Source: a virus. Taken from it: a stretch of DNA of 64,000 nucleotides. Each line of letters begins with the position of its first letter. The first letter of the stretch is position 1. The notes beneath the pieces are model-generated. The model ran no database searches. It was given only the letters and a program-made list of their open reading frames with translations, and was not told where the DNA came from. The stretch is from IMG/VR virus record IMGVR_UViG_3300032287_003808, positions 62,001 to 126,000 of that record; one strand, written 5' to 3'. A program made the translations under genes and the position numbers. Shown in pieces: positions 11,377 through 31,823 of the stretch.

Positions 11377-11409
11377 AATATACGTAATTCAATTTCAGAG
11401 TCTGTATCC
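11377..11409 (-). promoter_or_regulatory. ECF-like early promoter
   Basis: GGATAC, 19-bp gap, CGTATATT; for the gene starting at 11352. Confidence 0.7.
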
Positions 11410-11607
11410 CAACATATAATTGCCAATGTAACTATCTAAACTTGTTCCGCGGCAAATGTCATACCCTGTTTCCGCCTTGTCGTTATCACGTTTCGCATAC
11501 TCTTCTAACGCGGTGTACACTTCAGGTATCAATATTTTCTTCCACCCTGACAACTGTTCTGCTTGGATTCTCATTCCGTCCACTACTGTAAAAACTTTTC
11601 TTTCCAT
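11395..11607 (-). CDS. Small early protein, unknown
   Basis: A 70-residue protein starting MERKVFTVVDGMRIQAEQ, mixed alpha/beta by appearance. Leader ends in CGGTTATG, shared with its neighbours. The end of the gene carries the GGATAC box of the next promoter. No family recognised. Confidence 0.72.
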   Translation of the reverse strand: MERKVFTVVDGMRIQAEQLSGWKKILIPEVYTALEEYAKRDNDKAETGYDICRGTSLDSYIGNYMLGYRL

Positions 11608-11630
11608 AACCGTTTCTTTAAATATACTTT

Positions 11631-11663
11631 AATATACGTAACTGTCTTTAGTCATTAGTGTCC
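11631..11663 (-). promoter_or_regulatory. ECF-like early promoter
   Basis: GGACAC, 19-bp gap, CGTATATT; for the gene starting at 11607. The upstream box lies inside the end of the 44-residue gene. Confidence 0.7.
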
Positions 11664-11782
11664 TTAGCTAACTCTTCAAACTGTAATATCAACAACGGAA
11701 CCAATCCGATTAAACCCCAATCGTTCCCGAACGCCAATAATATCGTTCCAAATACTCCTACTGTAATACCAAATGTTCTCAT
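11648..11782 (-). CDS. 44-residue membrane peptide
   Basis: The ATG at 11782 follows the array's usual leader (AAACGGTT). The peptide starts MRTFGITVGVFGTILLAFGN and has one or two hydrophobic segments followed by an acidic tail. It has its own ECF-like promoter, which supports a real gene. Function unknown. Confidence 0.7.
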   Translation of the reverse strand: MRTFGITVGVFGTILLAFGNDWGLIGLVPLLILQFEELAKDTND

Positions 11783-11805
11783 AACCGTTTCTTTAAATAT
11801 ACTGA

Positions 11806-11838
11806 AATATACGTAATGTCATTTGCGACTTATACTCC
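11806..11838 (-). promoter_or_regulatory. ECF-like early promoter
   Basis: GGAGTA, 19-bp gap, CGTATATT; for the gene starting at 11782. Confidence 0.72.
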
Positions 11839-12135
11839 CGTCTTTGCTCTCAATATGTCATCTAACATGTCGATTAGGTCTCCTAGGTAGCCATTACGAG
11901 CTAAGTCATCTAAATCGTATGTCTGGTCTTCATAATACCCACCACAACAATCACATCCGAAATCAATATACTCACCTAACACTACTGTTCCGTTTTCGAA
12001 ATCGAAACCTCGCAACTCCAATTTACCCACTTTGTCAAGTCGATCACACCATAACTCCATTTCGAAATCGATGTCTTTAATTTTTCCGAATTGTGTAAAC
12101 GTGTTACACGCGTCCATAAACTCTCTTGCTGTCAT
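11830..12135 (-). CDS. Acidic early protein, unknown
   Basis: About 101 residues from the ATG at 12135, chosen because it follows GAAGGTT like its neighbours; an in-frame TTG nine bases further up is less likely. The protein starts MTAREFMDACNTFTQFGKI and contains CDCCGGYYEDQTYDLDDLA, a Cys-rich turn that could bind metal. The 25-residue gene upstream ends 5 bp before this start. Confidence 0.75.
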   Translation of the reverse strand: MTAREFMDACNTFTQFGKIKDIDFEMELWCDRLDKVGKLELRGFDFENGTVVLGEYIDFGCDCCGGYYEDQTYDLDDLARNGYLGDLIDMLDDILRAKTGV

Positions 12136-12140
12136 AACCT

Positions 12141-12218
12141 TCAATTTAGAATATACAATAAAGCAAATTTAACACCTACTACTCCCACTGCCAATAATAA
12201 ACATACTAAAACTTCCAT
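12141..12218 (-). CDS. 25-residue membrane peptide
   Basis: A single-helix peptide starting MEVLVCLLLAVGVVGVKFAL, with the usual leader (AACGGTTATG) and its own promoter. It lies just ahead of the 101-residue gene. Function unknown. Confidence 0.6.
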   Translation of the reverse strand: MEVLVCLLLAVGVVGVKFALLYILN

Positions 12219-12242
12219 AACCGTTATTTTTAATTATACTTT

Positions 12243-12275
12243 AATATACGTAACAATGTTTGGTGTTATTACTCC
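12243..12275 (-). promoter_or_regulatory. ECF-like early promoter
   Basis: GGAGTA, 19-bp gap, CGTATATT; for the gene starting at 12218. The GGAGTA box overlaps the stop codon region of the 52-residue gene. Confidence 0.75.
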
Positions 12276-12427
12276 TTTATAACGTGTTTAATATACTCTC
12301 CCTCATCGAACCAATAAAACGCTAGTCGTCCGTCTTCAAGTCGTAACGTTATCACCGCTTGGTCTAAATTGCCATCCATACTCAAAATGTCGGCTCCGTG
12401 TTTCTGTAAAAATGTTTGCGTTCTCAT
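12269..12427 (-). CDS. 52-residue early protein, unknown
   Basis: A small protein starting MRTQTFLQKHGADILSMDGN and ending IKHVIKE. Its last Glu codon and stop (GAGTAA) overlap the upstream box of the next promoter. It lacks its own ECF-like box and is probably read from the promoter of the repeat protein at 12483-12905. A hairpin lies 11 bp before the ATG. Confidence 0.65.
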   Translation of the reverse strand: MRTQTFLQKHGADILSMDGNLDQAVITLRLEDGRLAFYWFDEGEYIKHVIKE

Positions 12428-12437
12428 GTACCCCGAA

Positions 12438-12455
12438 AGCCCGATTACTCGGGCT
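12438..12455 (-). promoter_or_regulatory. Leader hairpin or terminator
   Basis: Stem AGCCCGA / TCGGGCT with a 4-nt loop, followed by TTC on the minus strand, 11 bp before the ATG at 12427 and 28 bp after the repeat-protein gene. It could be an attenuating terminator or a translation control element. Confidence 0.5.
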
Positions 12456-12482
12456 CACAAGGTGTATATTTAAGATAACCGG

Positions 12483-12905
12483 TTATGAAGCGGTGTCGTT
12501 AATTACTACTTTTGGTCTTCCAAGTGGCATCACACCACCATTAGCGGCTTTCTTGGCTTCCATTTCCGCCAATCGTTTCTGGCGCGCACTTTCCCCATTC
12601 ACCGGGCGACCTTTTTTCAACTCACCATTTGCTCGTTTCGTCTCTAACTCCACTAACCGCATTTGGCGGGCACTGTCTGCCTTAATTGGTCGACCCTTTT
12701 TCAACTCACCATTCGCTCGTTTCTCAGCCAACTCGGCAATTCGTATTTGGCGGGCACTATCTGCCTTAACTGGTCGGCCTCGTTTCCCTGTTGTCTCTGG
12801 CTTGGCCATGTTTGCCAACATCTCTTCCAATACTACGCTCTTCATTGTATGAGCTCCTTTAATTCCTGCTGCAATCGCTGTTGCTACTAATTCATTTCTT
12901 TTCAT
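12483..12905 (-). CDS. Tandem-repeat protein with GRP (AT-hook-like) motifs
   Basis: The 140-residue basic protein has three and a half copies of a unit of about 28 residues: (K)KGRPxxxxSARQxRLxEL followed by xxKRANGELK. GRP flanked by basic residues is the core of AT-hooks, which bind the minor groove of AT-rich DNA, so a DNA-binding or DNA-packing role is likely but not proven. A paralogue lies at 14841-15161. This copy uses clearly more GC-rich codons than the paralogue, which hints at separate origin or selection. Confidence 0.8.
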   Translation of the reverse strand: MKRNELVATAIAAGIKGAHTMKSVVLEEMLANMAKPETTGKRGRPVKADSARQIRIAELAEKRANGELKKGRPIKADSARQMRLVELETKRANGELKKGRPVNGESARQKRLAEMEAKKAANGGVMPLGRPKVVINDTAS

Positions 12906-12931
12906 AACTGTTATTTTTAATTATACTTTAA

Positions 12932-12964
12932 TATACGTAACTGATTTAACTTAACTTACTCCCC
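12932..12964 (-). promoter_or_regulatory. ECF-like early promoter
   Basis: GGGGTA, 19-bp gap, CGTATATT; for the repeat protein starting at 12905. Confidence 0.65.
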
Positions 12965-13096
12965 ACTTAAACTGATGTAATTAAATTGGTTGTAATCCAT
13001 CTCACCAATAATCATAGATGCTACTACCGTTACTAATCCTACTACCGCAATGGTTCCCATTGCTCCTAATACTAATGTTTCAATCCAATTTTTCAT
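12953..13096 (-). CDS. 47-residue membrane peptide
   Basis: Starts MKNWIETLVLGAMGTIAVVG and has one long membrane helix, then a short polar tail. Leader AAAAAGGTT before the ATG at 13096 and its own promoter support the call. Its end overlaps the upstream box of the next promoter. Confidence 0.68.
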
Positions 13097-13111
13097 AACC
13101 TTTTTTTATTT

Positions 13112-13144
13112 AATATACGTAACCAATCTAACTAAACTTACTCC
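13112..13144 (-). promoter_or_regulatory. ECF-like early promoter
   Basis: GGAGTA, 19-bp gap, CGTATATT; for the gene starting at 13096. The box overlaps the final GAG-TAA of the 22-residue gene. Confidence 0.75.
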
Positions 13145-13206
13145 TCATTATATTCAGAGTACCATTCAATCTTTTCCCAGCTAATTAGTCCATCAAAATT
13201 CTCCAT
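13138..13206 (-). CDS. 22-residue peptide
   Basis: A very short acidic frame starting MENFDGLISWEKIEWYSEYN, preceded by AAAGGTT and an ECF-like promoter. The regular promoter-leader-frame-box layout is the only support, so I hold it with moderate confidence. Confidence 0.5.
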   Translation of the reverse strand: MENFDGLISWEKIEWYSEYNEE

Positions 13207-13230
13207 AACCTTTATCTTAAAATATAATTA

Positions 13231-13263
13231 AATATAAGTAATTTACTTTAATTCATTTACTCC
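13231..13263 (-). promoter_or_regulatory. ECF-like early promoter
   Basis: GGAGTA, 19-bp gap, CTTATATT; for the gene starting at 13206. Confidence 0.7.
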
Positions 13264-13448
13264 TTACTTAACCATTTTAACCCATTAACATCTTTAACTT
13301 CAATAATCTCATACTCATTTTTATCCCTATCACACAATTCTTCAAACTCAATCTCACCCACCTCATAACCTAAACTCTCAATCAATTCTTCCTTACTATT
13401 ACTAATAAAACTAAAATTTAAACAATAATCAATCACTAAATACTTCAT
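13257..13448 (-). CDS. Small acidic early protein
   Basis: 63 residues, starting MKYLVIDYCLNFSFISNSKE, with a helix-rich acidic middle (EELIESLGYEVGEIEFEEL). Start follows the usual leader. No family recognised. Confidence 0.72.
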   Translation of the reverse strand: MKYLVIDYCLNFSFISNSKEELIESLGYEVGEIEFEELCDRDKNEYEIIEVKDVNGLKWLSKE

Positions 13449-13472
13449 AACTTTATCTTTTTAATTTATATA

Positions 13473-13505
13473 AATATAAGTAACAAAAATGGGGGCTCTT
13501 ACACC
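13473..13505 (-). promoter_or_regulatory. ECF-like early promoter with embedded hairpin
   Basis: GGTGTA, 19-bp gap, CTTATATT; for the gene starting at 13448. GGTGTA lies in the stem-loop of the terminator at 13485-13509. Confidence 0.65.
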
Positions 13506-13509
13506 CCCA
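13485..13509 (-). terminator. Rho-independent terminator inside a promoter
   Basis: TGGGGG / CCCCCA stem, 8-nt loop, then TTTTTG on the minus strand, after the gene ending at 13514. It occupies the spacer and upstream box of the next promoter. Confidence 0.75.
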
Positions 13510-13513
13510 CTAA

Positions 13514-13735
13514 TTAAATATAATCATATTCATCATTCCAATTACACTCAATAAATCCTATCTCACTCAAATCATCTATATAATTATAACAAAAATCTAA
13601 ATAATCTTTATAAATTATATCCTCACCCACCTTAAACTCATTTAAAAAGTTATTTAACATCTCATCATCCTCATAAGATTCAATCACTTCTTTAACATAG
13701 TCATAATCTCTAGTCTTAAATTTAATTTTTCCCAT
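13514..13735 (-). CDS. Small acidic early protein
   Basis: 73 residues, Asp/Glu/Tyr-rich (YDYVKEVIESYEDDEMLNNF), net strongly negative. Strongly acidic small phage proteins can mimic DNA, but nothing here shows that. Followed by a clear terminator. Confidence 0.72.
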   Translation of the reverse strand: MGKIKFKTRDYDYVKEVIESYEDDEMLNNFLNEFKVGEDIIYKDYLDFCYNYIDDLSEIGFIECNWNDEYDYI

Positions 13736-13759
13736 AATCTTTATTTTTTAATTTATATA

Positions 13760-13792
13760 AATATAAGTAATAAAATTAAATAATTATGTTCC
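13760..13792 (-). promoter_or_regulatory. ECF-like early promoter
   Basis: GGAACA, 19-bp gap, CTTATATT; for the gene starting at 13735. Confidence 0.7.
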
Positions 13793-13794
13793 TG

Positions 13795-13983
13795 TTAATT
13801 AAATGTTACCATCCTGTGAGCTAATAAAGCCAACTCCGTGTCATTAAAGGGCTCTTCTCCCTCGTTAATATATTTTCTCAATTGGTAGGCCACTATGGCC
13901 TTTATATCCTGGCCTGATATCTCCCCTTCATTAGCCCTCTTCATGGCCAGTTTGAACCTGTTTATTACTTTAATCTCATTCAT
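13795..13983 (-). CDS. Small helical early protein
   Basis: 62 residues, starting MNEIKVINRFKLAMKRANEG; two or three helices are likely. Own promoter and terminator-type hairpin upstream. No family recognised. Confidence 0.72.
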   Translation of the reverse strand: MNEIKVINRFKLAMKRANEGEISGQDIKAIVAYQLRKYINEGEEPFNDTELALLAHRMVTFN

Positions 13984-14008
13984 AACCTTTATCTTTTTAA
14001 TTTATCTT

Positions 14009-14041
14009 AATATACGTAATTTGTTGGGGCTATTTTATTCC
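14009..14041 (-). promoter_or_regulatory. ECF-like early promoter with embedded hairpin
   Basis: GGAATA, 19-bp gap, CGTATATT; for the gene starting at 13983. The box lies in the loop region of the hairpin at 14026-14048. Confidence 0.75.
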
Positions 14042-14048
14042 TAGCCCC
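14026..14048 (-). terminator. Terminator-like hairpin inside a promoter
   Basis: GGGGCTA / TAGCCCC stem with a 9-nt loop, at the end of the gene at 14030-14260 and overlapping its stop codon. No long T-run follows. Confidence 0.6.
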
Positions 14049-14260
14049 TCATATTTCAATAAACTATTTGCAATATACCTATGTACGGCATTTATATTTT
14101 TGAATTGGGACACATTATCAACAATTATTTTCTTGTCTGTGTCCTTAATATTTTTAGTTTCAATAAAACTTAGAATTACTCCTTTTGCCTCATTCAAATC
14201 TCTAATCTGGAATACTTGTGGTGCCACCTCTTCCAATACGCTTTTAATTTTGATCTTCAT
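14030..14260 (-). CDS. Small basic early protein
   Basis: 76 residues, starting MKIKIKSVLEEVAPQVFQIR, Lys-rich, with two helices and a short strand likely. Stop codon lies in the hairpin that also carries the next promoter box. No family recognised. Confidence 0.72.
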   Translation of the reverse strand: MKIKIKSVLEEVAPQVFQIRDLNEAKGVILSFIETKNIKDTDKKIIVDNVSQFKNINAVHRYIANSLLKYEGLGIK

Positions 14261-14284
14261 AACTTTATCTTTTTAATTTATTTA

Positions 14285-14317
14285 AATATATGTAACTAAA
14301 TTAGGGGGTCTTATTCC
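14285..14317 (-). promoter_or_regulatory. ECF-like early promoter with embedded hairpin
   Basis: GGAATA, 19-bp gap, CATATATT; for the gene starting at 14260. GGAATA forms the loop side of the hairpin at 14301-14323. Confidence 0.72.
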
Positions 14318-14323
14318 CCCTAA
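14301..14323 (-). terminator. Terminator-like hairpin inside a promoter
   Basis: TTAGGGGG / CCCCCTAA stem with a 7-nt loop, then TTTAG on the minus strand. It includes the stop codon of the gene at 14320-14580. Confidence 0.7.
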
Positions 14324-14580
14324 ATCCAATCCATACTATATCCCATTTCAACTAACTTATCCATAATATACTCTGGTAATTCAAATACACCATCATAATC
14401 TCTTAGGTAAGTTGTGTCTCCTTCCTTATCAAACCATAGGCCTCCTTCGGCATAAACCCTTTCACCCCCTGTTTCAACATCATACAATTCAAACCAACCG
14501 TAGCCTTCATTCTTGATTCCTACTGTCACTTCTAATTCTGTTCCTCGTGGTGATACCACCTTAAATGTTTCTTCTTTCAT
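14320..14580 (-). CDS. Small early protein, beta-rich
   Basis: 86 residues with a likely antiparallel beta sheet (EETFKVVSPRGTELEVTVGI; GYGWFELYDVETGGERVYA) and a closing helix. Usual leader and promoter. No family recognised. Confidence 0.74.
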   Translation of the reverse strand: MKEETFKVVSPRGTELEVTVGIKNEGYGWFELYDVETGGERVYAEGGLWFDKEGDTTYLRDYDGVFELPEYIMDKLVEMGYSMDWI

Positions 14581-14596
14581 AACCTTTTTTTCTTTT

Positions 14597-14629
14597 AATA
14601 TACGTAACTATTTCTAATGATTTTACTCC
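14597..14629 (-). promoter_or_regulatory. ECF-like early promoter
   Basis: GGAGTA, 19-bp gap, CGTATATT; for the gene starting at 14580. Confidence 0.75.
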
Positions 14630-14776
14630 CTAAAAATCACTTTTCATTAGTTCCTCTATCTTTTCTTTTAATTCTCCTAGTAATTCAGATGTTAGCTTTT
14701 CCTCATCAGCTAGTCCATTGTTCATTACATTAACTAATTCCTGTAGTACTAGTTGCTTTTCTTCCTTTAAACTCAT
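14630..14776 (-). CDS. 48-residue helical peptide
   Basis: Starts MSLKEEKQLVLQELVNVMNN and is entirely helical and acidic, probably a coiled coil. It has its own promoter and ends directly before the next promoter box. Confidence 0.68.
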   Translation of the reverse strand: MSLKEEKQLVLQELVNVMNNGLADEEKLTSELLGELKEKIEELMKSDF

Positions 14777-14792
14777 ATCTCTTTTTTTCTTA

Positions 14793-14825
14793 AATATATG
14801 TAATTAAAATAGGGGCTTTTACACC
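14793..14825 (-). promoter_or_regulatory. ECF-like early promoter with embedded hairpin
   Basis: GGTGTA, 19-bp gap, CATATATT; for the gene starting at 14776. Overlaps the hairpin at 14808-14831. Confidence 0.68.
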
Positions 14826-14831
14826 CCTATT
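14808..14831 (-). terminator. Terminator-like hairpin inside a promoter
   Basis: AATAGGGG / CCCCTATT stem with an 8-nt loop, then TTTAATT on the minus strand, just after the repeat protein ending at 14841. Confidence 0.7.
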
Positions 14832-14840
14832 ATTTTATTT

Positions 14841-15161
14841 TTATTCTTCACTTTTAATCATTTTTGGTCTCCCTAACTTAAAAGTTCCATTTAATTTTCT
14901 TTCTTCTATTTCCTTCAACCTCATCTGTCTTTTACTCTCTCCATTAACAGGTCTTCCTTTCTTTAACTCCCCATTACTTCTCTTCTCTTCTAATTCTTTT
15001 AGCCTTACCTGTCTAACACTATCTTCTTTAATGGGTCTTCCTTTTTTAATCTCCCCATTCTTTCTTCTTTCTTCTAATTCCTTTAGTCTTAATTGTCTTA
15101 CACTTTCAGGATTAACTGGGCGTCCCAATTGTTTTACTTCAATAATCTCTACTTTTTTCAT
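14841..15161 (-). CDS. Tandem-repeat protein with GRP (AT-hook-like) motifs
   Basis: The 106-residue paralogue of the protein at 12483-12905 has three full units of about 28 residues of the form (K)GRPxxxxSxRQxRLKELE then ExRxNGExK, and a last LGRP. It is very basic. The GRP cores suggest minor-groove DNA binding, by analogy with AT-hooks. Codons are AT-rich, like its neighbours and unlike the other paralogue. A terminator follows the gene. Confidence 0.8.
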   Translation of the reverse strand: MKKVEIIEVKQLGRPVNPESVRQLRLKELEERRKNGEIKKGRPIKEDSVRQVRLKELEEKRSNGELKKGRPVNGESKRQMRLKEIEERKLNGTFKLGRPKMIKSEE

Positions 15162-15186
15162 AACACTTATCTTTTTAATTTACTTA

Positions 15187-15219
15187 AATATACGTAACAA
15201 ATTTAACTTAAAACATTCC
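15187..15219 (-). promoter_or_regulatory. ECF-like early promoter
   Basis: GGAATG, 19-bp gap, CGTATATT; for the repeat protein starting at 15161. GGAATG codes the Gly-Met end of the upstream gene. Confidence 0.7.
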
Positions 15220-15402
15220 CCCGTCAATAATAAATACTTTAGTCTTTTTATTATCATCTTCACTCAGGTATACTTTTTCAGTTCCTATGTACTCAACATC
15301 ATTATAGTAAATATAATTTGTTGGGTCGGTTCCTTGAACAATCACTTCTAGATCTTTGTCCTTAACCTTTTCTAATTTTTTAATTAACTCCTTTACTGTC
15401 AT
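15208..15402 (-). CDS. Small early protein, unknown
   Basis: 64 residues, starting MTVKELIKKLEKVKDKDLEV and ending IIDGGMF. The form (short helix, DLEV strand, acidic loop, FIIDGG strand) is that of a widespread small phage and bacterial protein type of unknown function. Confidence 0.75.
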   Translation of the reverse strand: MTVKELIKKLEKVKDKDLEVIVQGTDPTNYIYYNDVEYIGTEKVYLSEDDNKKTKVFIIDGGMF

Positions 15403-15429
15403 AACCTTTTATATTTTTAATTATGTTGA

Positions 15430-15462
15430 AATATACGTAACAATTTCTAATAATTTTATTCC
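15430..15462 (-). promoter_or_regulatory. ECF-like early promoter
   Basis: GGAATA, 19-bp gap, CGTATATT; for the gene starting at 15402. Confidence 0.75.
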
Positions 15463-15767
15463 TCACTATCTATCATTTCTTTTAATTCTAGGAAAAAATC
15501 ATAGGCATCTGTTTTTCCTCCTATATGGAACTCATCCAATTCATTCATGGTGTATTCCTCATCATAAGTCTTCCAATCATAAACTGTAAATATCTCTCCA
15601 TTATACTCTACAATCCATTCCTTCTGAACCTTATCATCTCCTGATGCTTCTGGGTGTGTTGGTTCCCCTAGTACCCTAACTAGGTCCTGGTAGGTACAGT
15701 TAATGTATCCTTTAAATCCAGACCCTGATGTCTTCCCTTTTAATTCATTTTCTTTTAATACTTTCAT
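15456..15767 (-). CDS. Conserved-type phage protein, unknown
   Basis: 103 residues with the run GKTSGSGFKGYINCTYQDLV, then EWIVEYNGEIFTVYDWKTY and a late IGGK. I recall this layout from small proteins of many unrelated phages, where its role is unknown. Own promoter upstream; the final EE codons run into the next promoter box. Confidence 0.8.
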   Translation of the reverse strand: MKVLKENELKGKTSGSGFKGYINCTYQDLVRVLGEPTHPEASGDDKVQKEWIVEYNGEIFTVYDWKTYDEEYTMNELDEFHIGGKTDAYDFFLELKEMIDSEE

Positions 15768-15782
15768 AACCTTTTTTCTTTT

Positions 15783-15815
15783 AATATACGTAACTCTTTT
15801 AATCTAAGCTTATCC
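15783..15815 (-). promoter_or_regulatory. ECF-like early promoter
   Basis: GGATAA, 19-bp gap, CGTATATT; for the gene starting at 15767. Confidence 0.7.
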
Positions 15816-15951
15816 CCTTATGTTTATCTTTACGGGTGTATTTCTTTTTTGATTCCATCGCCCTCGCAACAAATCTTCCATCAAAGTACCCCTGTTGTTT
15901 CTGTGATTCCCTTGTGGCTCCTATGTTCATTTTAATTGTCTCCTTTTTCAT
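15799..15951 (-). CDS. 50-residue basic peptide
   Basis: Starts MKKETIKMNIGATRESQKQQ and is Lys/Arg-rich throughout. Supported by its promoter and compact spacing to neighbours. Could bind nucleic acid by charge; not shown. Confidence 0.65.
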   Translation of the reverse strand: MKKETIKMNIGATRESQKQQGYFDGRFVARAMESKKKYTRKDKHKGISLD

Positions 15952-15968
15952 TTCTTTTATTTTTAATA

Positions 15969-16001
15969 AATATACGAAACAATTTTAATAATTTTTAGTC
16001 C
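15969..16001 (-). promoter_or_regulatory. ECF-like early promoter
   Basis: GGACTA, 19-bp gap, CGTATATT; for the gene starting at 15951. Confidence 0.72.
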
Positions 16002-16008
16002 CTTTTAA

Positions 16009-16203
16009 TCATTCTCCCCCCTGTTCCCCCGTGGGGGTGTGGGGGTTGTATATACTTTCGTTCTCTACCCAAAGGGTCGTGTTCGCACCATGTAAGGGTC
16101 CGATACGACATTCCTCTATTCCACACTTATCATCTCCTGTTTTCCACCTACTCACAATCACTTCTAATCTCATTACCCCCTTATATTCCTGTTTGTCACC
16201 CAT
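16009..16203 (-). CDS. Small early protein, uncertain
   Basis: A 64-residue frame starting MGDKQEYKGVMRLEVIVSRW. It lies in the expected slot, with its stop 8 bp before the next promoter box, but it lacks an ECF-like promoter of its own. A 30-codon frame at 16196-16288 overlaps its start and might be translated first. Composition near the 3' end is unusually GC-rich with C-runs. Confidence 0.45.
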   Translation of the reverse strand: MGDKQEYKGVMRLEVIVSRWKTGDDKCGIEECRIGPLHGANTTLWVENESIYNPHTPTGEQGGE

Positions 16204-16315
16204 TGGTAAATATCCTTAATAAATTAAACGCGTATAAAACACTCAAATAACACTTATGATACATTTTATATTTTAATGGTGTTCTCATTTATATCACATT
16301 TATTTCATTTCTTAT

Positions 16316-16498: not shown

Positions 16499-16511
16499 AA
16501 CTTTTTATTTT

Positions 16512-16544: not shown

Positions 16545-16553
16545 TCTATAATC

Positions 16554-19796: not shown

Positions 19797-19829
19797 AATA
19801 TACGAAAGGCTCTCTAATGAGAGCCTTCC
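19797..19829 (-). promoter_or_regulatory. ECF-like early promoter with embedded hairpin
   Basis: GGAAGG, 19-bp gap, CGTATATT; for the gene starting at 19782. The gap is filled by the hairpin at 19806-19827. Confidence 0.68.
19806..19827 (-). terminator. Terminator hairpin inside a promoter spacer
   Basis: AAGGCTCTC / GAGAGCCTT, a 9-bp stem with a 4-nt loop, then TTCGTATATT on the minus strand. It lies after the gene ending at 19850. Confidence 0.75.
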
Positions 19830-25466: not shown

Positions 25467-25499
25467 AATATAAGTAAGACCCCCTAATGGGGGTCGTCC
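25467..25499 (-). promoter_or_regulatory. ECF-like early promoter with embedded hairpin
   Basis: GGACGA, 19-bp gap, CTTATATT; for the gene starting at 25441. The gap holds the hairpin at 25478-25495. Confidence 0.68.
25478..25495 (-). terminator. Terminator hairpin inside a promoter spacer
   Basis: GACCCCC / GGGGGTC, a 7-bp stem with a TAAT-type loop, then TTACTTATATT on the minus strand. It follows the RecA-fold gene. Confidence 0.72.
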
Positions 25500-26340: not shown

Positions 26341-26373
26341 AATATACGAAACTTATTTTAAATAAAATCTTCC
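26341..26373 (-). promoter_or_regulatory. ECF-like early promoter
   Basis: GGAAGA, 19-bp gap, CGTATATT; for the ATPase starting at 26313. The box lies in the acidic end of the sigma-factor gene. Confidence 0.73.
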
Positions 26374-26903
26374 TCTACTAATTTATCTTTAAGAAGATCT
26401 CTTAATTTAGCTTTTGCTTTGAATAGATTTGATTTAGAAGTCCCTTCATTTATACCTAATATTTCAGCTACTTCTTTATGTGGGTGTTCTTCTAACACAT
26501 ATAATTTAAAAACTTTCCTATATGAATCAGGTAGTTTCTCTATTGTTAATAGTATTGTATCTAAAAAATCCTCACTATACTTTTTTTCCTCAGATTTAAG
26601 ATGAGTAGTATTAACATCAACAGTATTGTTTTTGAATTTATCTTTTCTTATTTCATCAATAGCTGTATTAATTACAATTCTACGCATCCACCCCTCTATT
26701 GAGTTGTTATATGAGTATTGAGATATTCTGTTAAATATTTTAATAAAACTGAGTTGTACTATGTCTTGTGCTTGGTGTTCGTTTTGAGTGTATTTAAGGC
26801 TCACATGCAACATTTTACTGTAGAACATATTGAACAGTGTTGTTTGACTCGCTTGTTTGTTTTGAACGCATCCATCAATGATATGTTTAAGATTATTTTC
26901 CAT
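26358..26903 (-). CDS. ECF-type RNA polymerase sigma factor
   Basis: 181 residues from the ATG at 26903, which overlaps the stop of the small membrane protein by 11 bp; an ATG at 26915 is also possible. Region 2 spans about 47-87 (AQDIVQLSFIKIFNRI, then GWMRRIVINTAIDEIRK). Region 4 spans about 124-168 (LPDSYRKVFKLYVLEEHPH, EVAEILGINEGTSKSNLF). There is no region 1 or 3, so it is of the ECF class used widely in Bacteroidota. ECF sigma factors read a GGAA-type -35 and a CGT-containing -10, the very pattern seen before the array genes. It is read from the promoter at 27114-27146 and so may activate its own synthesis. Confidence 0.9.
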   Translation of the reverse strand: MENNLKHIIDGCVQNKQASQTTLFNMFYSKMLHVSLKYTQNEHQAQDIVQLSFIKIFNRISQYSYNNSIEGWMRRIVINTAIDEIRKDKFKNNTVDVNTTHLKSEEKKYSEDFLDTILLTIEKLPDSYRKVFKLYVLEEHPHKEVAEILGINEGTSKSNLFKAKAKLRDLLKDKLVEEDFI

Positions 26904-27099
26904 CAATATACTCATCTGTAAGGCATACATTACATTTTTGCTTTGGGGCAAAATTATAAGTGTATATTCCTAATAATAATAGACCCCAAGTATAAAACCA
27001 ATATTTAGGGTGGAATAATGCTTTGAAGAATAAACTCACAGCCATTATAACAAAACTAATCATCAACACTCCACTAATAACATTCCAAAACCCTTTCAT
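26893..27099 (-). CDS. Small membrane protein next to the sigma factor
   Basis: 68 residues with two membrane helices (VISGVLMISFVIMAVSLFF; YWFYTWGLLLLGIYTYNF) and a C-terminal CNVC motif. It overlaps the ECF sigma gene, so the two are co-translated. ECF factors are often held by a membrane anti-sigma partner; that role is a guess here, since the protein is very short. Confidence 0.72.
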   Translation of the reverse strand: MKGFWNVISGVLMISFVIMAVSLFFKALFHPKYWFYTWGLLLLGIYTYNFAPKQKCNVCLTDEYIDGK

Positions 27100-27113
27100 A
27101 ATTTTTTTATTTA

Positions 27114-27146
27114 AATATAAGTAAAATATCTTATTTAAAATATTCC
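27114..27146 (-). promoter_or_regulatory. ECF-like early promoter
   Basis: GGAATA, 19-bp gap, CTTATATT; for the membrane protein and ECF sigma operon. Confidence 0.75.
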
Positions 27147-27665
27147 TTATTCAAATACAATTGTATCTCCTCTTAATGAGTATTGAAATGATCTTCCAAT
27201 TTCATATTGTCTATATTGAGATGTTTTAAGGTACTTTCTAATTGTGTCTTTAGCTTTGGTAAGTGGCTTTCTAGTATCTTCTTTTTTATCACCTTCTTCT
27301 AATACTACTTTTTTCACTTTCATTCCATATACAAACAAAGTCCCTTTCTCATTATGTACTTTCAAACCAGCACCTAAATGAGTATAAGCATTCTTAATCC
27401 CTTCAGAACGATTTTTAGATGGTGTTTGAAAGCTACTTAACAATTCCACTCTAGCTTCTTCTAATAATTCAACATCTACAGAACTATTTAGAGTAGATAC
27501 ATCTAATCCTTTTAGATACTCTATATCTTTCAGTTTAGCTTTTTCATAATCAACTCCAACATTGAATAATGTTTGATGTTTCTCATTCTGTTGATTAACA
27601 TATGTAACCGATACAAACGATACACCTGTAATTTCTTTTAGCTTTTCAATCAATTTTTCTGTCAT
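27147..27665 (-). CDS. Early protein, unknown
   Basis: 172 residues, starting MTEKLIEKLKEITGVSFVSV. Likely alpha/beta, with a basic C-terminal third (KTSQYRQYEIGRSFQYSLRG). I recall similar proteins in other phages without known function. Its GAA-TAA end forms the next promoter box. Confidence 0.77.
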   Translation of the reverse strand: MTEKLIEKLKEITGVSFVSVTYVNQQNEKHQTLFNVGVDYEKAKLKDIEYLKGLDVSTLNSSVDVELLEEARVELLSSFQTPSKNRSEGIKNAYTHLGAGLKVHNEKGTLFVYGMKVKKVVLEEGDKKEDTRKPLTKAKDTIRKYLKTSQYRQYEIGRSFQYSLRGDTIVFE

Positions 27666-27679
27666 AACTTTTTTATTTT

Positions 27680-27712
27680 AATATACGAAACTCATTTGGG
27701 GTAACCTATTCC
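27680..27712 (-). promoter_or_regulatory. ECF-like early promoter
   Basis: GGAATA, 19-bp gap, CGTATATT; for the gene starting at 27665. Confidence 0.75.
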
Positions 27713-27713
27713 T

Positions 27714-28067
27714 TTACTTCTGGCAGCAGTAACAGAAGCTTTCTTCATAATCATAATTGTCAGCTATTTCTCTTAGCTGTTCAACTGTAACTGTGTTATA
27801 AAATTCTTCACCCCGGCCAACTACATCATAAACTAAATCACTCCAACTATCATCACTCACATCAATTCCAGGTCCACCATCTCGTCCTAACCAAGCATCT
27901 TGATATGTTCTTGATAATAATCCTGCTTTACTATGAATAAATTCTTTTAGTGTTTTAAAATCATCATCTGATAGTTCTGACCATTCGTTTGATATTCTTT
28001 TGTAACTATGGTCTAGTTTCCATCGGGCTGCTTCAATTAGTTGCCAACATTTTTTCTCGTTCATCAT
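27714..28067 (-). CDS. Early protein, unknown
   Basis: 117 residues, starting MMNEKKCWQLIEAARWKLDH and ending ESFCYCCQK, a Cys-rich tail that could bind metal. Helical middle. I recall similar small proteins (LIEAAxWxxDHxYxRI) in phages and bacteria of unknown role. Confidence 0.78.
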   Translation of the reverse strand: MMNEKKCWQLIEAARWKLDHSYKRISNEWSELSDDDFKTLKEFIHSKAGLLSRTYQDAWLGRDGGPGIDVSDDSWSDLVYDVVGRGEEFYNTVTVEQLREIADNYDYEESFCYCCQK

Positions 28068-28091
28068 AACCTTTATTTTTTAATTTACTTT

Positions 28092-28124
28092 AATATACGA
28101 AACCTATTTTATAAAATCTATTCC
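28092..28124 (-). promoter_or_regulatory. ECF-like early promoter
   Basis: GGAATA, 19-bp gap, CGTATATT; for the gene starting at 28067. Confidence 0.75.
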
Positions 28125-28354
28125 TCCTCAAACTCCATACATACAACCATATGTTCAGGTAAGTATTCTACTTGGCCAGCGCTTTCATTGTATTTTGTAT
28201 ACTCCGGGTTTTCAATTATTTCAAAGTAACATTTATCTTTTTGAATATAAAGCAAACGGCCTCGTAATGTTGAGAATAAATTACTAGTTAATACCCGCCC
28301 AATCATTTCATTGAGTTTAGGTGTTTGTGGTGTACGGAGTGTAACTCGTTTCAT
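28118..28354 (-). CDS. Small early protein, unknown
   Basis: 78 residues, starting MKRVTLRTPQTPKLNEMIGR; beta-rich. ATGA overlap with the next gene upstream; last of a four-gene unit that starts at 29046. Ends EEE then stop, overlapping a promoter box. Confidence 0.73.
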   Translation of the reverse strand: MKRVTLRTPQTPKLNEMIGRVLTSNLFSTLRGRLLYIQKDKCYFEIIENPEYTKYNESAGQVEYLPEHMVVCMEFEEE

Positions 28355-28584
28355 CTTACAATATCTATTGCTTGTTTAACTTTACCTAACAACGCTTCTA
28401 AATCTTCAGGTCCATCTATAGCCCATTGCTCTGTTTTTAAAACATAAAATGCTCCTTCTGAATCTGAGATGCCCATATCTGACATACATTCGATTGTTAG
28501 TAGTTCATACCCACCCATGTCATTTGAACAACAATTTTCTTCTTGGATGAATTCAAATGTAACTTTATCTAATTTAATTTCCAT
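28351..28584 (-). CDS. Small early protein, unknown
   Basis: 77 residues, starting MEIKLDKVTFEFIQEENCCS; mixed alpha/beta. Overlaps the gene below by 4 bp and lies 6 bp below the membrane protein. No family recognised. Confidence 0.73.
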   Translation of the reverse strand: MEIKLDKVTFEFIQEENCCSNDMGGYELLTIECMSDMGISDSEGAFYVLKTEQWAIDGPEDLEALLGKVKQAIDIVR

Positions 28585-28590
28585 AATCTT

Positions 28591-28941
28591 TTATTTAACA
28601 AATAATTGTACTAATAATATTCCAAAGGCTAATATTAAGCAAATGATAGTTTTCATTGTTAACGGTTCATTAAATACAGACCAACTCAACCAACTAAACA
28701 CCATCGCACCAATTGAAAATCCAATTAAACGTGATGGCCACATTTGACCATCAAATGCTGTTATCATATTTTTAACCGAGTACATAAACAACATTGATAT
28801 TGGAATACCCATTAATACTGTTAACCAATAATGGGTTTTAAACCATTCATACTTCATAGGGCCTTGTAGTTGAAAAAATGTAGCTATTTGAGCTAATAAT
28901 CCAAAAATCATTCCTAATAATAATGCTCCAATATTTACCAT
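28591..28941 (-). CDS. Small four-helix membrane protein, DMT-like
   Basis: 116 residues with four hydrophobic segments. The end PLTMKTIICLILAFGILLVQ resembles the last helices of small DMT/EamA-type transporters (E-PLT motif, also in the protein at 40454-40768). A transport role is possible but a phage-specific membrane function is just as likely. Confidence 0.7.
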   Translation of the reverse strand: MVNIGALLLGMIFGLLAQIATFFQLQGPMKYEWFKTHYWLTVLMGIPISMLFMYSVKNMITAFDGQMWPSRLIGFSIGAMVFSWLSWSVFNEPLTMKTIICLILAFGILLVQLFVK

Positions 28942-28944
28942 ATT

Positions 28945-29046
28945 TTATACTATACAACCACAATTACTGCATTTAACTATTGTTAGACCATTCATGTGGC
29001 GTACTGCTACATAAGTCTTTTTGTGTTCACATTTAACTGTTTCCAT
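28945..29046 (-). CDS. 33-residue zinc-finger-like peptide
   Basis: Starts METVKCEHKKTYVAVRHMNG and ends with CSNCGC, so four Cys (plus His) are placed as in a minimal zinc ribbon. First gene of a four-gene unit, with own promoter and leader. Confidence 0.65.
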   Translation of the reverse strand: METVKCEHKKTYVAVRHMNGLTIVKCSNCGCIV

Positions 29047-29059
29047 AACTTTTTATTTT

Positions 29060-29092
29060 AATATACGAAATTTCTTTTGCTTAAACAATTCC
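29060..29092 (-). promoter_or_regulatory. ECF-like early promoter
   Basis: GGAATT, 19-bp gap, CGTATATT; for the gene starting at 29046. Lies just below the terminator at 29097-29136. Confidence 0.73.
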
Positions 29093-29096
29093 TTTA

Positions 29097-29136
29097 ATAA
29101 AAAAACCTGCCGTGCGTTCGTATCCACACGGCAGGT
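29097..29136 (-). terminator. Strong rho-independent terminator
   Basis: ACCTGCCGTG / CACGGCAGGT, a 10-bp stem, followed by seven T on the minus strand. It ends the unit made of the gene at 29288-30091 and the tRNA-like element. Confidence 0.9.
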
Positions 29137-29162
29137 AAAAGAAACGGTTATGAAGCGTTTTG

Positions 29163-29221
29163 TAGTCAGGACAGGATTCGAACCTGTGGGTGCCTACCAG
29201 CGTATAATTGCTTACCTGACT
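29163..29221 (-). tRNA. Short tRNA-like element (59 nt), probably defective
   Basis: It has a 7-bp acceptor-like stem (AGTCAGG / CCTGACT) and a perfect T-arm (ACAGG TTCGAAT CCTGT), but only 27 nt between them, so there is no room for normal D and anticodon arms. The last 27 nt are identical to those of the 123-nt element at 36347-36469. A 6-bp pairing GGTGCC / GGCACC reaches upstream of the acceptor and would form a pseudoknot. Either a tRNA remnant or an RNA that mimics the tRNA acceptor domain. Confidence 0.55.
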
Positions 29222-29287
29222 TACCCCGAATCTTATAGTAGCGGCACCTTTACGCGGCCGTCGGTTCTACTTGCGACGATTTGTTGC

Positions 29288-30091
29288 TTAGGCTGCTATA
29301 TATTTAGCAGCCACTGCAAACAATTCTTTATTAACTTTCAAGTCTTGATTGAAGTTCTTGATTCTACGAGCCTTTCTACTTCTATTTCCCGCTACGTAGT
29401 TAAAGTCTCCATCCAAAATCTTCTCTTGAACCACATTAAATATTGACCACAAGTCACTTCCTTCATCTTCCTTACGAACTGGTTTCAATAGTTCCTTAGC
29501 GTCAACTGTAATCCGTTTCATTTCATCTTCATTGAATCGTGTTGCTAATGCTTTCAAAGCAAACTCAACTGCTTGTTTCTCATCCAGTTGTATACTCTTC
29601 ATTTTATTCATTGACTCAACAGTCAATGGTAGACGTTCAACCATTTCCCGGATCTTTACTTGTAGTTCTTCAAATGTATACCCTAAGTGTCTCATCTTGA
29701 CATCTTCAAACTGTTCAGTTGAAATTACTAGTCCGTTCTCACATACCATTCTAAACAAACCAGCTGTAAATGTAAATGCATTTTTACCATCATGGCTATT
29801 TGTTAATAGAATCTGTGGAAAAACATCATCACCATCTGTACCATTAATTACTACTTCTGGGTTTCTAAATACAATCAGATGTTTCTGGAATCCTACACCT
29901 TTACGTGCTTTAACTTCCTTGGCATCTACTACTTGCCATCCTAATTGTTTCATGTCATCCACAATTACTGATGTTGGGATGTGAGTGTAATGTTGTGATA
30001 CATTACTAGCCGCTGTGGCTGTGAATACGCTCGGAGCGATTCTTTTGATTTGCTCATTTGTCAAAAATGAGTCTTTGCTTAGATCTAACAT
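29288..30091 (-). CDS. Phage protein, DUF932-like
   Basis: 267 residues. The run HYTHIPTSVIVDDMKQLGW, KHLIVFRNPEV, QILLTNSHDGKNAFTF and GLFRMVCENGLVIS is the pattern of DUF932 / phage-plasmid-like proteins, which are common in mobile elements and of unknown function. The first gene of a unit that runs through the short tRNA-like element to a strong terminator. Confidence 0.8.
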   Translation of the reverse strand: MLDLSKDSFLTNEQIKRIAPSVFTATAASNVSQHYTHIPTSVIVDDMKQLGWQVVDAKEVKARKGVGFQKHLIVFRNPEVVINGTDGDDVFPQILLTNSHDGKNAFTFTAGLFRMVCENGLVISTEQFEDVKMRHLGYTFEELQVKIREMVERLPLTVESMNKMKSIQLDEKQAVEFALKALATRFNEDEMKRITVDAKELLKPVRKEDEGSDLWSIFNVVQEKILDGDFNYVAGNRSRKARRIKNFNQDLKVNKELFAVAAKYIAA

Positions 30092-30135
30092 AACTTTTCT
30101 TTTTTAATTAAACACTTATCTTTTTAATTTATTTT

Positions 30136-30168
30136 AATATACGAAAGATAATTTTAAAAATTTAATCC
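30136..30168 (-). promoter_or_regulatory. ECF-like early promoter
   Basis: GGATTA, 19-bp gap, CGTATATT; for the DUF932-like gene starting at 30091. Confidence 0.7.
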
Positions 30169-30740
30169 CTTTCAAAGTTTATATAACCTTCATTAAGGTA
30201 CTTATTCACATACACTTCAGGGTGTTGAAGAAATGATTCAATTTTCTGTTGCTTATCAATAGCCTTCTCAGTGAATTCTCTTTTTAGTCTTTCCTTACCC
30301 ATCTCAACTAATTCAGGTAGTTCATAAGCACAATCGCCCCATCTAGCAACTAATACTTTTTCAGTGTTCCAGGTATAACCATTTTCTCTATCACTTTGAG
30401 TTCGATATCTTTCTCCCACAATCAAAGGATCAGGATTTTTATTATCGAACCATACTTTAATAAAGTCAAACATTTCGTTGTCTTTAATAAACTTAATGGC
30501 GCGTAATACTTCAACTGGTACTGTGCTTCGATTATATTCTTCTAGACTAGTTTTAGCAGGGCATAACGCTTCTAATGCTCTAATTTGTACTTGGTTTAAT
30601 GTTTGATAGACACTAGGTGTTTTACCTTGTTTTACCTCAGGGATACCTAATTCCTCTGCTAATTTTTGATACTCTGCTAGCTCATTTTCGTCTAGCAACA
30701 AACCTACATTTTCAGGTTCGCGATAAATTTTAACTTCCAT
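30162..30740 (-). CDS. Early protein, unknown
   Basis: 192 residues, starting MEVKIYREPENVGLLLDENE; alpha-rich, with a conserved-looking RYRTQSDRENGYTWNTEKVL block and a basic C-terminus. Own promoter. No family recognised. Confidence 0.76.
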   Translation of the reverse strand: MEVKIYREPENVGLLLDENELAEYQKLAEELGIPEVKQGKTPSVYQTLNQVQIRALEALCPAKTSLEEYNRSTVPVEVLRAIKFIKDNEMFDFIKVWFDNKNPDPLIVGERYRTQSDRENGYTWNTEKVLVARWGDCAYELPELVEMGKERLKREFTEKAIDKQQKIESFLQHPEVYVNKYLNEGYINFERD

Positions 30741-30764
30741 AACTGTTATTTTTTAATTTATTTA

Positions 30765-30797
30765 AATATAAGTAACCTATTTTTAAAAGCCTATTCC
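30765..30797 (-). promoter_or_regulatory. ECF-like early promoter
   Basis: GGAATA, 19-bp gap, CTTATATT; for the gene starting at 30740. Confidence 0.74.
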
Positions 30798-30799
30798 TT

Positions 30800-30916
30800 T
30801 TACCCCGCCAGACAATAAAGTACAATCATTATGATTATTAATAATGATACAGCCGCACCCATAGCATCTTCTGGTTCTGGTTCTGTATTTGGGTTGTCGA
30901 AATCTATTTTTATCAT
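30800..30916 (-). CDS. 38-residue membrane peptide
   Basis: Starts MIKIDFDNPNTEPEPEDAMG, an acidic soluble part, and ends in one membrane helix. It lies 10 bp below the 189-residue gene; its stop is 3 bp before the next promoter box. Confidence 0.65.
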   Translation of the reverse strand: MIKIDFDNPNTEPEPEDAMGAAVSLLIIIMIVLYCLAG

Positions 30917-30926
30917 ATGTTGTTTA

Positions 30927-31496
30927 TTAATCCCACCAGTTTTTTATTTGTTGTTCTAGTATTTTGAATAATAATTCATGTGAGCGTTTTTGATTGTTAT
31001 ATGCGATACACATTGCTATTTCTTTTCTATCAGTCCCATCTGTTGGTTTTCCATACCAAGCGATTTTCCCTTCTAAAGCAAGTTTATATTGACGAGGATA
31101 TAAAGCAAAATATTCATCTAAATTATCTTCAACAGTGATAAACTCCATTGTGTACCATTTATTAGTTTCATCCGTTGGAATAAATTCATGTTCCTGGTGT
31201 AGATAATCTAAGTATTCAGTTTCATATGCATCTTCTTGTTGAATATAACATAAGCGAGCACACAATAACATCATTTCAGCATCGCGTTGAGCAGTAGTGT
31301 GACGATCATTACCTCCTATACAACATGCTTGCTGTTCAAGTTTAAACTGGAGGATTTTATAGATATAATTACTATCCCAGTTTCTATCTTTCCAAATTGT
31401 AGGGAACCATTCCCATAGATTTTTCATACCTTGAATGAAGTCTTTATGGTAATATCTACCTTCATACTTCCACCATAATCTTATTTTATAAAACAT
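30927..31496 (-). CDS. Conserved-type phage protein, unknown
   Basis: 189 residues with RLWWKYEGRYYHKDF, LWEWFPTIWKDRNWDSNYI and GGNDRHTTAQRDAEMMLLCA. I recall this Trp-rich family from several large phages; no function is known. It is 3 bp below the gene ending at 31500 and shares its promoter. Confidence 0.8.
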   Translation of the reverse strand: MFYKIRLWWKYEGRYYHKDFIQGMKNLWEWFPTIWKDRNWDSNYIYKILQFKLEQQACCIGGNDRHTTAQRDAEMMLLCARLCYIQQEDAYETEYLDYLHQEHEFIPTDETNKWYTMEFITVEDNLDEYFALYPRQYKLALEGKIAWYGKPTDGTDRKEIAMCIAYNNQKRSHELLFKILEQQIKNWWD

Positions 31497-31499
31497 ATC

Positions 31500-31772
31500 T
31501 TATTTTTCACATCCTTTATAAGCAAAATCATCAACAGATGATATTCCACATTTGCAAGTATTTGTATCTGTGTTAAACATACACCCTTTTAATGCTTTCT
31601 TTTTGTTCTCTACCCATACTGCTCGTTCAGCGTCTATAGATGATACTCTATTTTCAGGGTATATTGTACGGGCTACTCTTAGTCGTTTTTTAGGCTCAAC
31701 TGGCTTTTTACAAAGCATACCTAAGTTTCTTAGGAAACTAAACAACCGATACTTTAATCTTTTCTTTGTCAT
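31500..31772 (-). CDS. Small basic early protein
   Basis: 90 residues, very basic at the start (KKRLKYRLFSFLRNLGMLCK), with a C-terminal CMFN-TCKCG-GCEK Cys cluster that may bind metal. First gene of a three-gene unit. Confidence 0.73.
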   Translation of the reverse strand: MTKKRLKYRLFSFLRNLGMLCKKPVEPKKRLRVARTIYPENRVSSIDAERAVWVENKKKALKGCMFNTDTNTCKCGISSVDDFAYKGCEK

Positions 31773-31790
31773 AACTTTTATTTTTATTTG

Positions 31791-31823
31791 AATATACGAA
31801 ACTTATTTTTAAAGATCTATTCC
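31791..31823 (-). promoter_or_regulatory. ECF-like early promoter
   Basis: GGAATA, 19-bp gap, CGTATATT; for the gene starting at 31772. This is the highest-coordinate member of the dense array. Confidence 0.75.

What the first reader, a model, noticed from the sequence alone, without database searches (positions are those of the whole stretch)
11377..31823. A family of at least 45 near-identical bipartite promoters with fixed spacing across the early gene array
Reading the minus strand before start codons, I find GGA-type box, exactly 19 bp, then CGTATATT (or CTTATATT, CATATATT). Forty-five sites lie between 11377 and 31823, plus one outlier at 43281. The spacing is the same at every one of the 45, although the spacer sequence varies; at the outlier the upstream box fits best shifted by one base. 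Frequent upstream boxes are GGAATA, GGAGTA, GGAAGA, GGATTA and GGATGA. This is unlike the main Bacteroidota promoter (TTTG / TAnnTTTG) and very like ECF sigma promoters (GGAA with CGT).
Basis: partly seen in the sequence, partly recalled or inferred. Interest (0 to 1): 0.88.

Follow-up and report, generated by a model that had tools for sequence, protein, structure and literature searches.

The report
Phage promoters with swapped upstream box
A T4-like virus of Bacteroidota bacteria starts about 45 small genes from near-identical switches with a rigid layout; the same switch, often with a different upstream box, fills many related viruses but not bacterial genomes, so an unknown factor probably redirects the host's RNA polymerase to it.

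Summary
All 45 minus-strand sites are there (43 GGA, two GGT), each with the upstream G exactly 25 bp before the C of C[G/T/A]TATATT and an ATG downstream; shuffles give 0.03. The window lies in a 131-kb virus record of a T4-like phage related to Flavobacterium phage immuto. The same GGA-N22-CGTATATT promoters, at that one spacing only, occur in at least 34 other virus records (3-32 sites each) but only at chance level in bacterial genomes.

The ECF-sigma reading is only partly supported. The window does encode an ECF sigma factor (26358-26951), yet nearly all other carriers lack one, and GGA-to-CGT is 25 bp instead of 22-23. In relatives the same -10 element (TTTCGTATATT) sits at an equally rigid distance from TTTGG, the host-type -33 element; GGA phages use both boxes, some promoters carry both, and the box used is conserved gene family by gene family. 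The GGA box therefore looks like a swapped -35 module on a host-type promoter, as the MotA box is in T4 middle promoters. Its reader is unidentified. In 22% of sites the spacer also holds a terminator-like hairpin.

The parts
11377..31823 (-). Array of 45 promoters GG[A/T]-N22-C[G/T/A]TATATT; start of GG box, minus strand: 31823, 30797, 30168, 29092, 28124, 27712, 27146, 26373, 25499, 24728, 23962, 22863, 22310, 21571, 21223, 20864, 20614, 20318, 19829, 19576, 19000, 18494, 18235, 17885, 17615, 17257, 16845, 16544, 16001, 15815, 15462, 15219, 14825(GGT), 14629, 14317, 14041, 13792, 13505(GGT), 13263, 13144, 12962, 12275, 11838, 11663, 11409; each is 33 bp long
31791..31823 (-). first promoter of the array, GGAATA...TTTCGTATATT, 18 nt before the ATG of ORF 31500-31772
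27114..27146 (-). promoter (TTAC subclass) of the 68-aa ORF 26893-27099; the ECF sigma gene overlaps this ORF and follows it
30136..30168 (-). GGATTA-type promoter of the DUF932 gene, a gene that has a TTTGG promoter in most other GGA phages
11377..11409 (-). last promoter of the array, GGATAC...TTACGTATATT, 24 nt before the ATG of ORF 11128-11352
19797..19829 (-). promoter whose spacer is a 9-bp hairpin (AAGGCTCTC-ATTA-GAGAGCCTT), terminator-like
25467..25499 (-). promoter whose spacer holds a 7-bp hairpin (GACCCCC-ATTA-GGGGGTC), terminator-like
43281..43312 (-). outlier promoter with the GGA box one base closer (GGATAGG...TTACTTATATT), before ORF 42957-43256
26358..26951 (-). ECF sigma factor gene (197 aa, TTG start as listed)
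   Evidence: Pfam Sigma70_r4_2 9e-16, Sigma70_r2 1e-10, Sigma70_ECF 6e-5; phrog_1740 2e-26; PDB SigW 5e-15
37400..37429 (-). TTG-class promoter (GCTTGG-type box at the TTTGG position, then TTTCGTATATT)
57478..57507 (-). TTG-class promoter before ORF 56527-57471 (314 aa)
60930..60959 (-). TTG-class promoter before the clamp-loader-like gene 60015-60923
45624..45653 (-). TTG-class promoter (AAATTTGG...TTTCTTATATT)
10782..10811 (-). TTG-class promoter before ORF 10478-10750
29288..30091 (-). DUF932 protein gene, marker used to compare promoters across relatives
   Evidence: Pfam DUF932 2e-32
7357..8052 (-). gene of a 231-aa protein conserved in all relatives, possible T4 gp55-like late sigma factor (not proven)
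28118..28354 (-). F2, small protein family co-occurring with GGA arrays (candidate only)
42957..43256 (-). F1, small protein family co-occurring with GGA arrays (candidate only)
42746..42985 (-). F3, small protein family co-occurring with GGA arrays (candidate only)

Best explanation
The 45 sites are promoters of the phage's array of small, probably host-takeover genes, each driving one gene or a short operon. They are a variant of the phage's own host-type promoter. The downstream half, TTTCGTATATT, is shared by two promoter classes and is most likely melted by the host RNA polymerase with its primary sigma factor (sigma-ABfr). The upstream half exists in two interchangeable forms: TTTGG, which matches the host -33 element, and GGA, which starts 3 bp further upstream, at about -39. 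I infer that GGA is read by a second specificity factor, made or delivered by the phage, that takes over from sigma region 4 at -35, as T4 MotA/AsiA does at middle promoters with an unrelated box. Shown: the sites, the rigid spacing, the two boxes on one scaffold, hybrids with both boxes, conservation of box type by gene family, restriction to phages. Inferred: use as promoters, timing, that sigma-ABfr reads the -10, and that a separate factor reads GGA. Not identified: that factor.
For: Sites and spacing. Shared in viruses with 3-32 sites per record, all on one strand, reversed-pattern control 0-1. Rigid spacing of both boxes: GGA-N22-CGTATATT 328 sites against at most 10 at any neighbouring spacing; TTTGG-N17-CGTATATT 41 (GGA phages) and 54 (TTG-only phages) against 0-2 elsewhere. 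Same -10 for both boxes. Hybrids GGAATTGG and GGATTTGG. Box type conserved by gene family: agreement score 178 against a shuffle mean of 141 and maximum of 159, 0 of 1000 shuffles; the DUF932 gene keeps TTTGG in 10 of the 14 GGA-phage records compared, and one more carries a GGAATTGG hybrid. Cultured relative immuto has TTG promoters on its homologous array. Not a host promoter class. Model precedent: the MotA box replaces -35 with 12 +/- 1 bp to the -10 (PMC2988021).
Against: No MotA- or AsiA-like protein was found. The small families that co-occur with GGA arrays (F1, F2, F3) have no recognisable DNA-binding domain, F2 also occurs in 20 of 42 loci without GGA sites, and GGA phages are nearly one clade, so co-occurrence is weak evidence. 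T4 uses MotA for delayed genes, whereas GGA promoters lie on small array genes that look immediate-early. The -10 lacks the T-6 and G-5 of host TAHHTTTG promoters (PMC6847099), so reading by sigma-ABfr is itself unproven.
Confidence: 0.42

Rival explanations
1. An ECF sigma factor reads the promoters: sigma-4 binds GGA, sigma-2 binds CGT (or the TTTC just upstream). It is either the phage's own (26358-26951) or one of the host's many ECF sigmas.
For: GGAA and CGT trinucleotides; rigid spacing is an ECF hallmark (PMC6411747); a bona fide ECF sigma gene lies inside the array, in an operon behind a GGA promoter; the window's clade has a second subclass (GGAG with TTAC; GGAG in 7 of 20 TTAC sites and 0 of 21 TTTC sites, p=0.003) that could belong to its own sigma.
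Against: Only 3 of 35 motif-bearing records searched (G000, G014, G019) have an ECF region-4 match over the Pfam cut-off; records of 106-174 kb with 12-20 sites have none. G014 and G019 lack the TTAC subclass. GGA-to-CGT is 25 bp, not 22-23. The same -10 works with TTTGG. Virus contigs with the closest sigma relatives lack the motif. Host genomes show no such promoter class.
Confidence: 0.25
2. The host primary holoenzyme alone reads GGA as an alternative or extended -35 element; no extra factor exists and the two boxes differ only in strength or timing.
For: Early phage promoters normally need no phage factor (T4, PMC2988021); both boxes sit on one scaffold with hybrids; genome-wide the F. 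johnsoniae -33 element is weak (PMC6847099).
Against: GGA sits at -39 to -37, upstream of where region 4 contacts TTG; GGA-N22-CGTATATT is at chance level in 301 Flavobacteriaceae genomes; box type is conserved by gene family, which implies separate control.
Confidence: 0.23
3. The pairs are not promoters but RNA-level elements (terminator plus leader, or RNase processing sites such as the GGAG sites of T4 RegB).
For: 22% of sites carry a GC-containing hairpin of 6 bp or more between the two boxes (98 of 440, shuffles 3), and an A-rich leader follows.
Against: 78% have no hairpin, while the spacing stays exact whatever the spacer, as expected of DNA read by a protein; the -10-like box resembles TAHHTTTG and the TTTGG class is plainly promoter-like.
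Confidence: 0.04

Closest known systems
T4 middle promoters (MotA box plus sigma-70 -10; sigma appropriation by MotA/AsiA)
   Same: A phage box replaces the host -35 while the host-type -10 is kept; both promoter types coexist in one genome; many copies at fixed distance; T4-like phage.
   Different: Box is GGA at about -39 instead of a 9-10-bp MotA box centred at -30; spacing is exact rather than +/-1; no MotA/AsiA homologue found; the promoters serve the small-gene array rather than replication genes.
ECF sigma factor promoters (e.g. GGAACA-N17-GTT of Mtb sigma-H)
   Same: GGA upstream, CGT downstream, rigid spacing.
   Different: 25 bp from GGA to CGT; fifth base T or G instead of C; long TATATT -10; most carriers lack an ECF gene.
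Bacteroidota primary promoters (-33 TTTG, -7 TAHHTTTG; sigma-ABfr)
   Same: The sister class in the same phages has TTTGG and TATATT(TA); TTG to TA is 23 bp.
   Different: GGA class has no TTTG; phage -10 has an upstream TTTCG and lacks G-5; spacing is exact.
T4 early promoters
   Same: Dense array of strong, over-specified promoters before small host-takeover genes.
   Different: T4 early promoters match the host consensus at every element; GGA promoters do not.

Membership tests
ECF sigma promoters | GGAAC-like -35 element | tested here: inconclusive
   GGA fixed, fourth base A in 64-73%, but the fifth base is T or G and almost never C
ECF sigma promoters | -35/-10 distance of about 22-23 bp from GGA to CGT/GTT, rigid | tested here: not met
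   rigid, but 25 bp (reference distance from PMC6411747)
ECF sigma promoters | an ECF sigma gene in the genomes that carry the promoters | tested here: not met
   over the Pfam cut-off in 3 of 35 motif-bearing records; some are fragments, but records up to 174 kb lack it. Host ECF genes could not be tested
T4-type middle promoters (sigma appropriation) | host -10 kept, -35 replaced by a phage box | tested here: met
   same TTTCGTATATT with TTTGG or GGA, hybrids present
T4-type middle promoters (sigma appropriation) | MotA box about 12 bp from the -10 | tested here: not met
   GGA starts 27 bp before TATATT; no TGCTT box in the logo
T4-type middle promoters (sigma appropriation) | MotA and AsiA encoded | tested here: inconclusive
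   candidate families F1-F3 hit no informative Pfam or PHROG family; F2 model has no PDB match at E <= 0.001; not every gene was scanned
Bacteroidota sigma-ABfr promoters | -33 TTTG | tested here: not met
   absent at GGA sites, present in the sister class
Bacteroidota sigma-ABfr promoters | -7 TAHHTTTG | tested here: inconclusive
   TATATT matches positions -12 to -7; -6 varies and -5 is A
any promoter | transcripts start just downstream | not testable with these tools
   no transcript data

The most novel reading that the evidence does not exclude
A previously undescribed promoter-specificity system in T4-like Bacteroidota phages: a phage factor unrelated to MotA/AsiA recognises GGA at -39 at an exact distance and redirects the host sigma-ABfr holoenzyme to tens of promoters, replacing TTTG gene family by gene family.
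Probability: 0.38. Interest if true: 0.75.

Novelty: new variant of a known kind. Interest (0 to 1): 0.6.

Why it matters
Transcription programmes of large Bacteroidota phages are little known. These data give a complete cis-map to test: two rigid early-type promoter classes on one scaffold and a separate late-type motif, in a family with a cultured member (immuto on Flavobacterium). It makes a concrete question testable: what reads GGA. A phage factor that retargets Bacteroidota RNA polymerase would also be a useful tool, because standard E. coli promoters do not work in these bacteria.

Tried and rejected
1) Phage ECF sigma as the general reader: suggested by the gene at 26358-26951, but nearly all other motif-bearing records lack one, and contigs with its closest relatives lack the motif. 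2) Host promoter class: chance-level hits in 257 Gb of genomes, all single and among Bacteroidota mostly inside genes such as the glmS-like reading frame; in 301 Flavobacteriaceae at most 3 per genome, like the reversed control. The two intergenic hits (F. taihuense, Echinicola) have no ECF gene nearby. 3) F1/F2/F3 as the GGA reader: perfect or near-perfect co-occurrence but clade-bound; F1 has weak relatives in TTG-only phages, F2 occurs in 20 of 42 loci without GGA and its confident model (pLDDT 86) has no significant PDB match. 4) Structure of the gp55-like protein: AlphaFold confidence too low for a fold search, PDB profile search empty. 5) No paper found on promoters or transcriptomes of Flavobacterium T4-like phages; the library holds open-access papers only. 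6) Megablast against cultured phages: no match. 7) Several 'TTG' counts include matches inside genes, so TTG totals are approximate.
Full report
WHAT WAS CLAIMED AND WHAT IS THERE. I recover exactly 45: 43 with GGA and two with GGT (14825, 13505). The GG starts 25 bp before the C of the -10-like octamer at every one. In 11000-32000 the octamer occurs 48 times on that strand; 43 have GGA at -25 and two have GGT; GGA is seen at only two other offsets (once and twice); simulated sequence gives 0.03 on average. Every site has an ATG 13-27 nt below the box (44 nt once). The plus strand has none and other spacings 0-2. The outlier has its GGA one base closer.

EXTENDED ANATOMY. The logo (397 sites from 41 other virus contigs) is rrGGA(A)(T/G)A, about 8 loose positions, tAAAa, 4 loose positions, TTTCGTATATT, then A-rich sequence; in the window the leader usually ends in GTTATG. 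In the window about half of the sites have TTAC instead of TTTC, and GGAG occurs only with TTAC (7 of 20 against 0 of 21, p=0.003); this subclass was seen only in the window's own clade.

WHERE IT LIES. The window is bases 62001-126000 of a 131,434-bp virus record. It has a T4-type baseplate-wedge relative, a T4-like terminase whose best cultured match (60% identity) is Flavobacterium phage vB_FspM_immuto_2-6A, and gene content shared with that phage.

HOW WIDESPREAD. Whole-record counts give 3-32 sites in 34 further records, all on one strand, with a reversed-pattern control of 0-1. In 301 Flavobacteriaceae genomes a shorter pattern is found at most three times per genome, as is the reversed control. 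The promoters belong to phages.

THE ECF IDEA. The array contains a genuine ECF sigma factor gene (26358-26951) in an operon behind a GGA promoter. But among the 35 motif-bearing records searched, only this one and G014 and G019 have an ECF region-4 match over the Pfam cut-off, although records up to 174 kb were among them; the sigmas of G014 and G019 are only about 34% identical to the window's. Contigs carrying other relatives of the sigma do not carry the motif. The distance is also wrong: sigma-H prefers GGAACA-N17-GTT (PMC6411747), which puts GTT 23 bp from the first G; here the G of CGT is 26 bp and the C 25 bp away. I treat the sigma gene as an accessory gene of uncertain role and keep an ECF reader as a rival.

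TWO BOXES ON ONE SCAFFOLD. In the cultured relative immuto the homologous array is preceded by TTG-N20-TATATTTAG promoters. In other relatives it is TTTGG-N17-CGTATATT, again at one spacing only. Inside GGA phages the TTCGTATATT sites without GGA usually have TTTGG at the same place. In 13 GGA phages I count 318 GGA, 65 TTG and 6 promoters with both boxes (GGAATTGG, GGATTTGG). GGA occupies positions 0-2 and TTTGG positions 3-7 of one register, so the boxes abut. Another clade has GGT at that position (L330). The box used is conserved by gene family: the within-family agreement score is 178 against a shuffle mean of 141 and a maximum of 159 in 1000 shuffles. The clearest case is the DUF932 gene, which keeps a TTTGG promoter in 10 of the 14 GGA-phage records compared, with one GGAATTGG hybrid among the rest, while its neighbours have GGA. 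The window itself is an exception: its DUF932 gene has a GGA promoter. On a DUF932 tree, the GGA label needs about three changes where shuffled labels need 18, so it is nearly one clade, with an uncertain separate case in G008 and possible losses (L301, L315).

A NESTED HAIRPIN. In 98 of 440 sites the spacer contains a GC-containing stem of 6 bp or more, against 3 in shuffled spacers, for example GGAAGCCCTCAATTAAGAGGGCTTTCGTATATT. I read this as the intrinsic terminator of the upstream gene fitted exactly between the two promoter boxes (inference). It also shows that only GGA and the -10, not the spacer, carry the information.

THE LATE CLASS IS SEPARATE. Upstream of many structural genes of this phage and of immuto lies (a)ATATTTATAA, mostly 12-30 nt before the ATG. 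A protein conserved in all relatives (7357-8052) could be a T4 gp55-like late sigma; PHROGs gives only a weak hit to 'late sigma transcription factor' for the immuto homologue (E 0.5) and the structure model was poor. The GGA sites are not this class.

MECHANISM. The shared -10, the abutting boxes, the hybrids and the exact spacing fit best with one polymerase that melts TTTCGTATATT and two alternative upstream contacts. TTTGG matches the host -33 element. GGA does not match any host element known to me, is absent from hosts, and is assigned gene by gene; I therefore think it is read by a phage-directed factor acting in place of sigma region 4, functionally like MotA/AsiA. The steps that the sites are promoters and that host sigma-ABfr reads the -10 are inferred. 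Candidate factors F1-F3 co-occur with GGA arrays (17, 16 and 17 of 18 GGA loci against 4, 1 and 0 of 46 others), but this is expected of any clade-specific gene, F2 also occurs without GGA, and none shows a DNA-binding domain.

VERDICT. A real, striking and widespread phage promoter class; a new variant of a known kind (a phage box replacing -35 on a host-type promoter). The ECF resemblance is suggestive but fails two tests. I score interest at 0.6.

Noticed in passing
genome-wide, e.g. 97098 and 63526 of G000 (window 35098 and 1526): Probable late promoter motif aATATTTATAA on the coding strand before structural genes in this phage and in immuto; it resembles the reverse complement of T4's TATAAATA.
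   Followed up: partly
window 7357-8052: Conserved 231-aa protein next to baseplate genes, possible gp55-like late sigma factor; AlphaFold model of low confidence.
   Followed up: partly
spacers of 98 of 440 sites, e.g. window 19797-19829 and 25467-25499: Terminator-like hairpins fitted exactly between the two promoter boxes.
   Followed up: partly
window 26358-26951; loci L081, L104: ECF sigma factor genes occur sporadically and highly diverged (about 34% identity) in phages of this group; distant ones occur in crAss-like phages as 'sigma-W factor'.
   Followed up: partly
window 12483-12905: Protein made of repeated KGRPV..SARQ.R..ELE.KR units resembling AT-hooks, in most GGA phages.
   Followed up: partly
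window 36347-36469: Rfam tRNA match 123 bases long (40 bits), not called by ARAGORN; perhaps a tRNA with an insertion.
   Followed up: no
window 38749-39876: Thymidylate synthase of 375 aa; PHROG profile of 335 positions matched over positions 29-306 only, which suggests an internal insertion.
   Followed up: no
locus L330: Related clade whose array promoters carry GGTCTTTGATGG at the GGA position: a third box type.
   Followed up: partly
window 62175-63821: Phage-encoded GroEL chaperonin (phrog_5725, E 3e-149).
   Followed up: no
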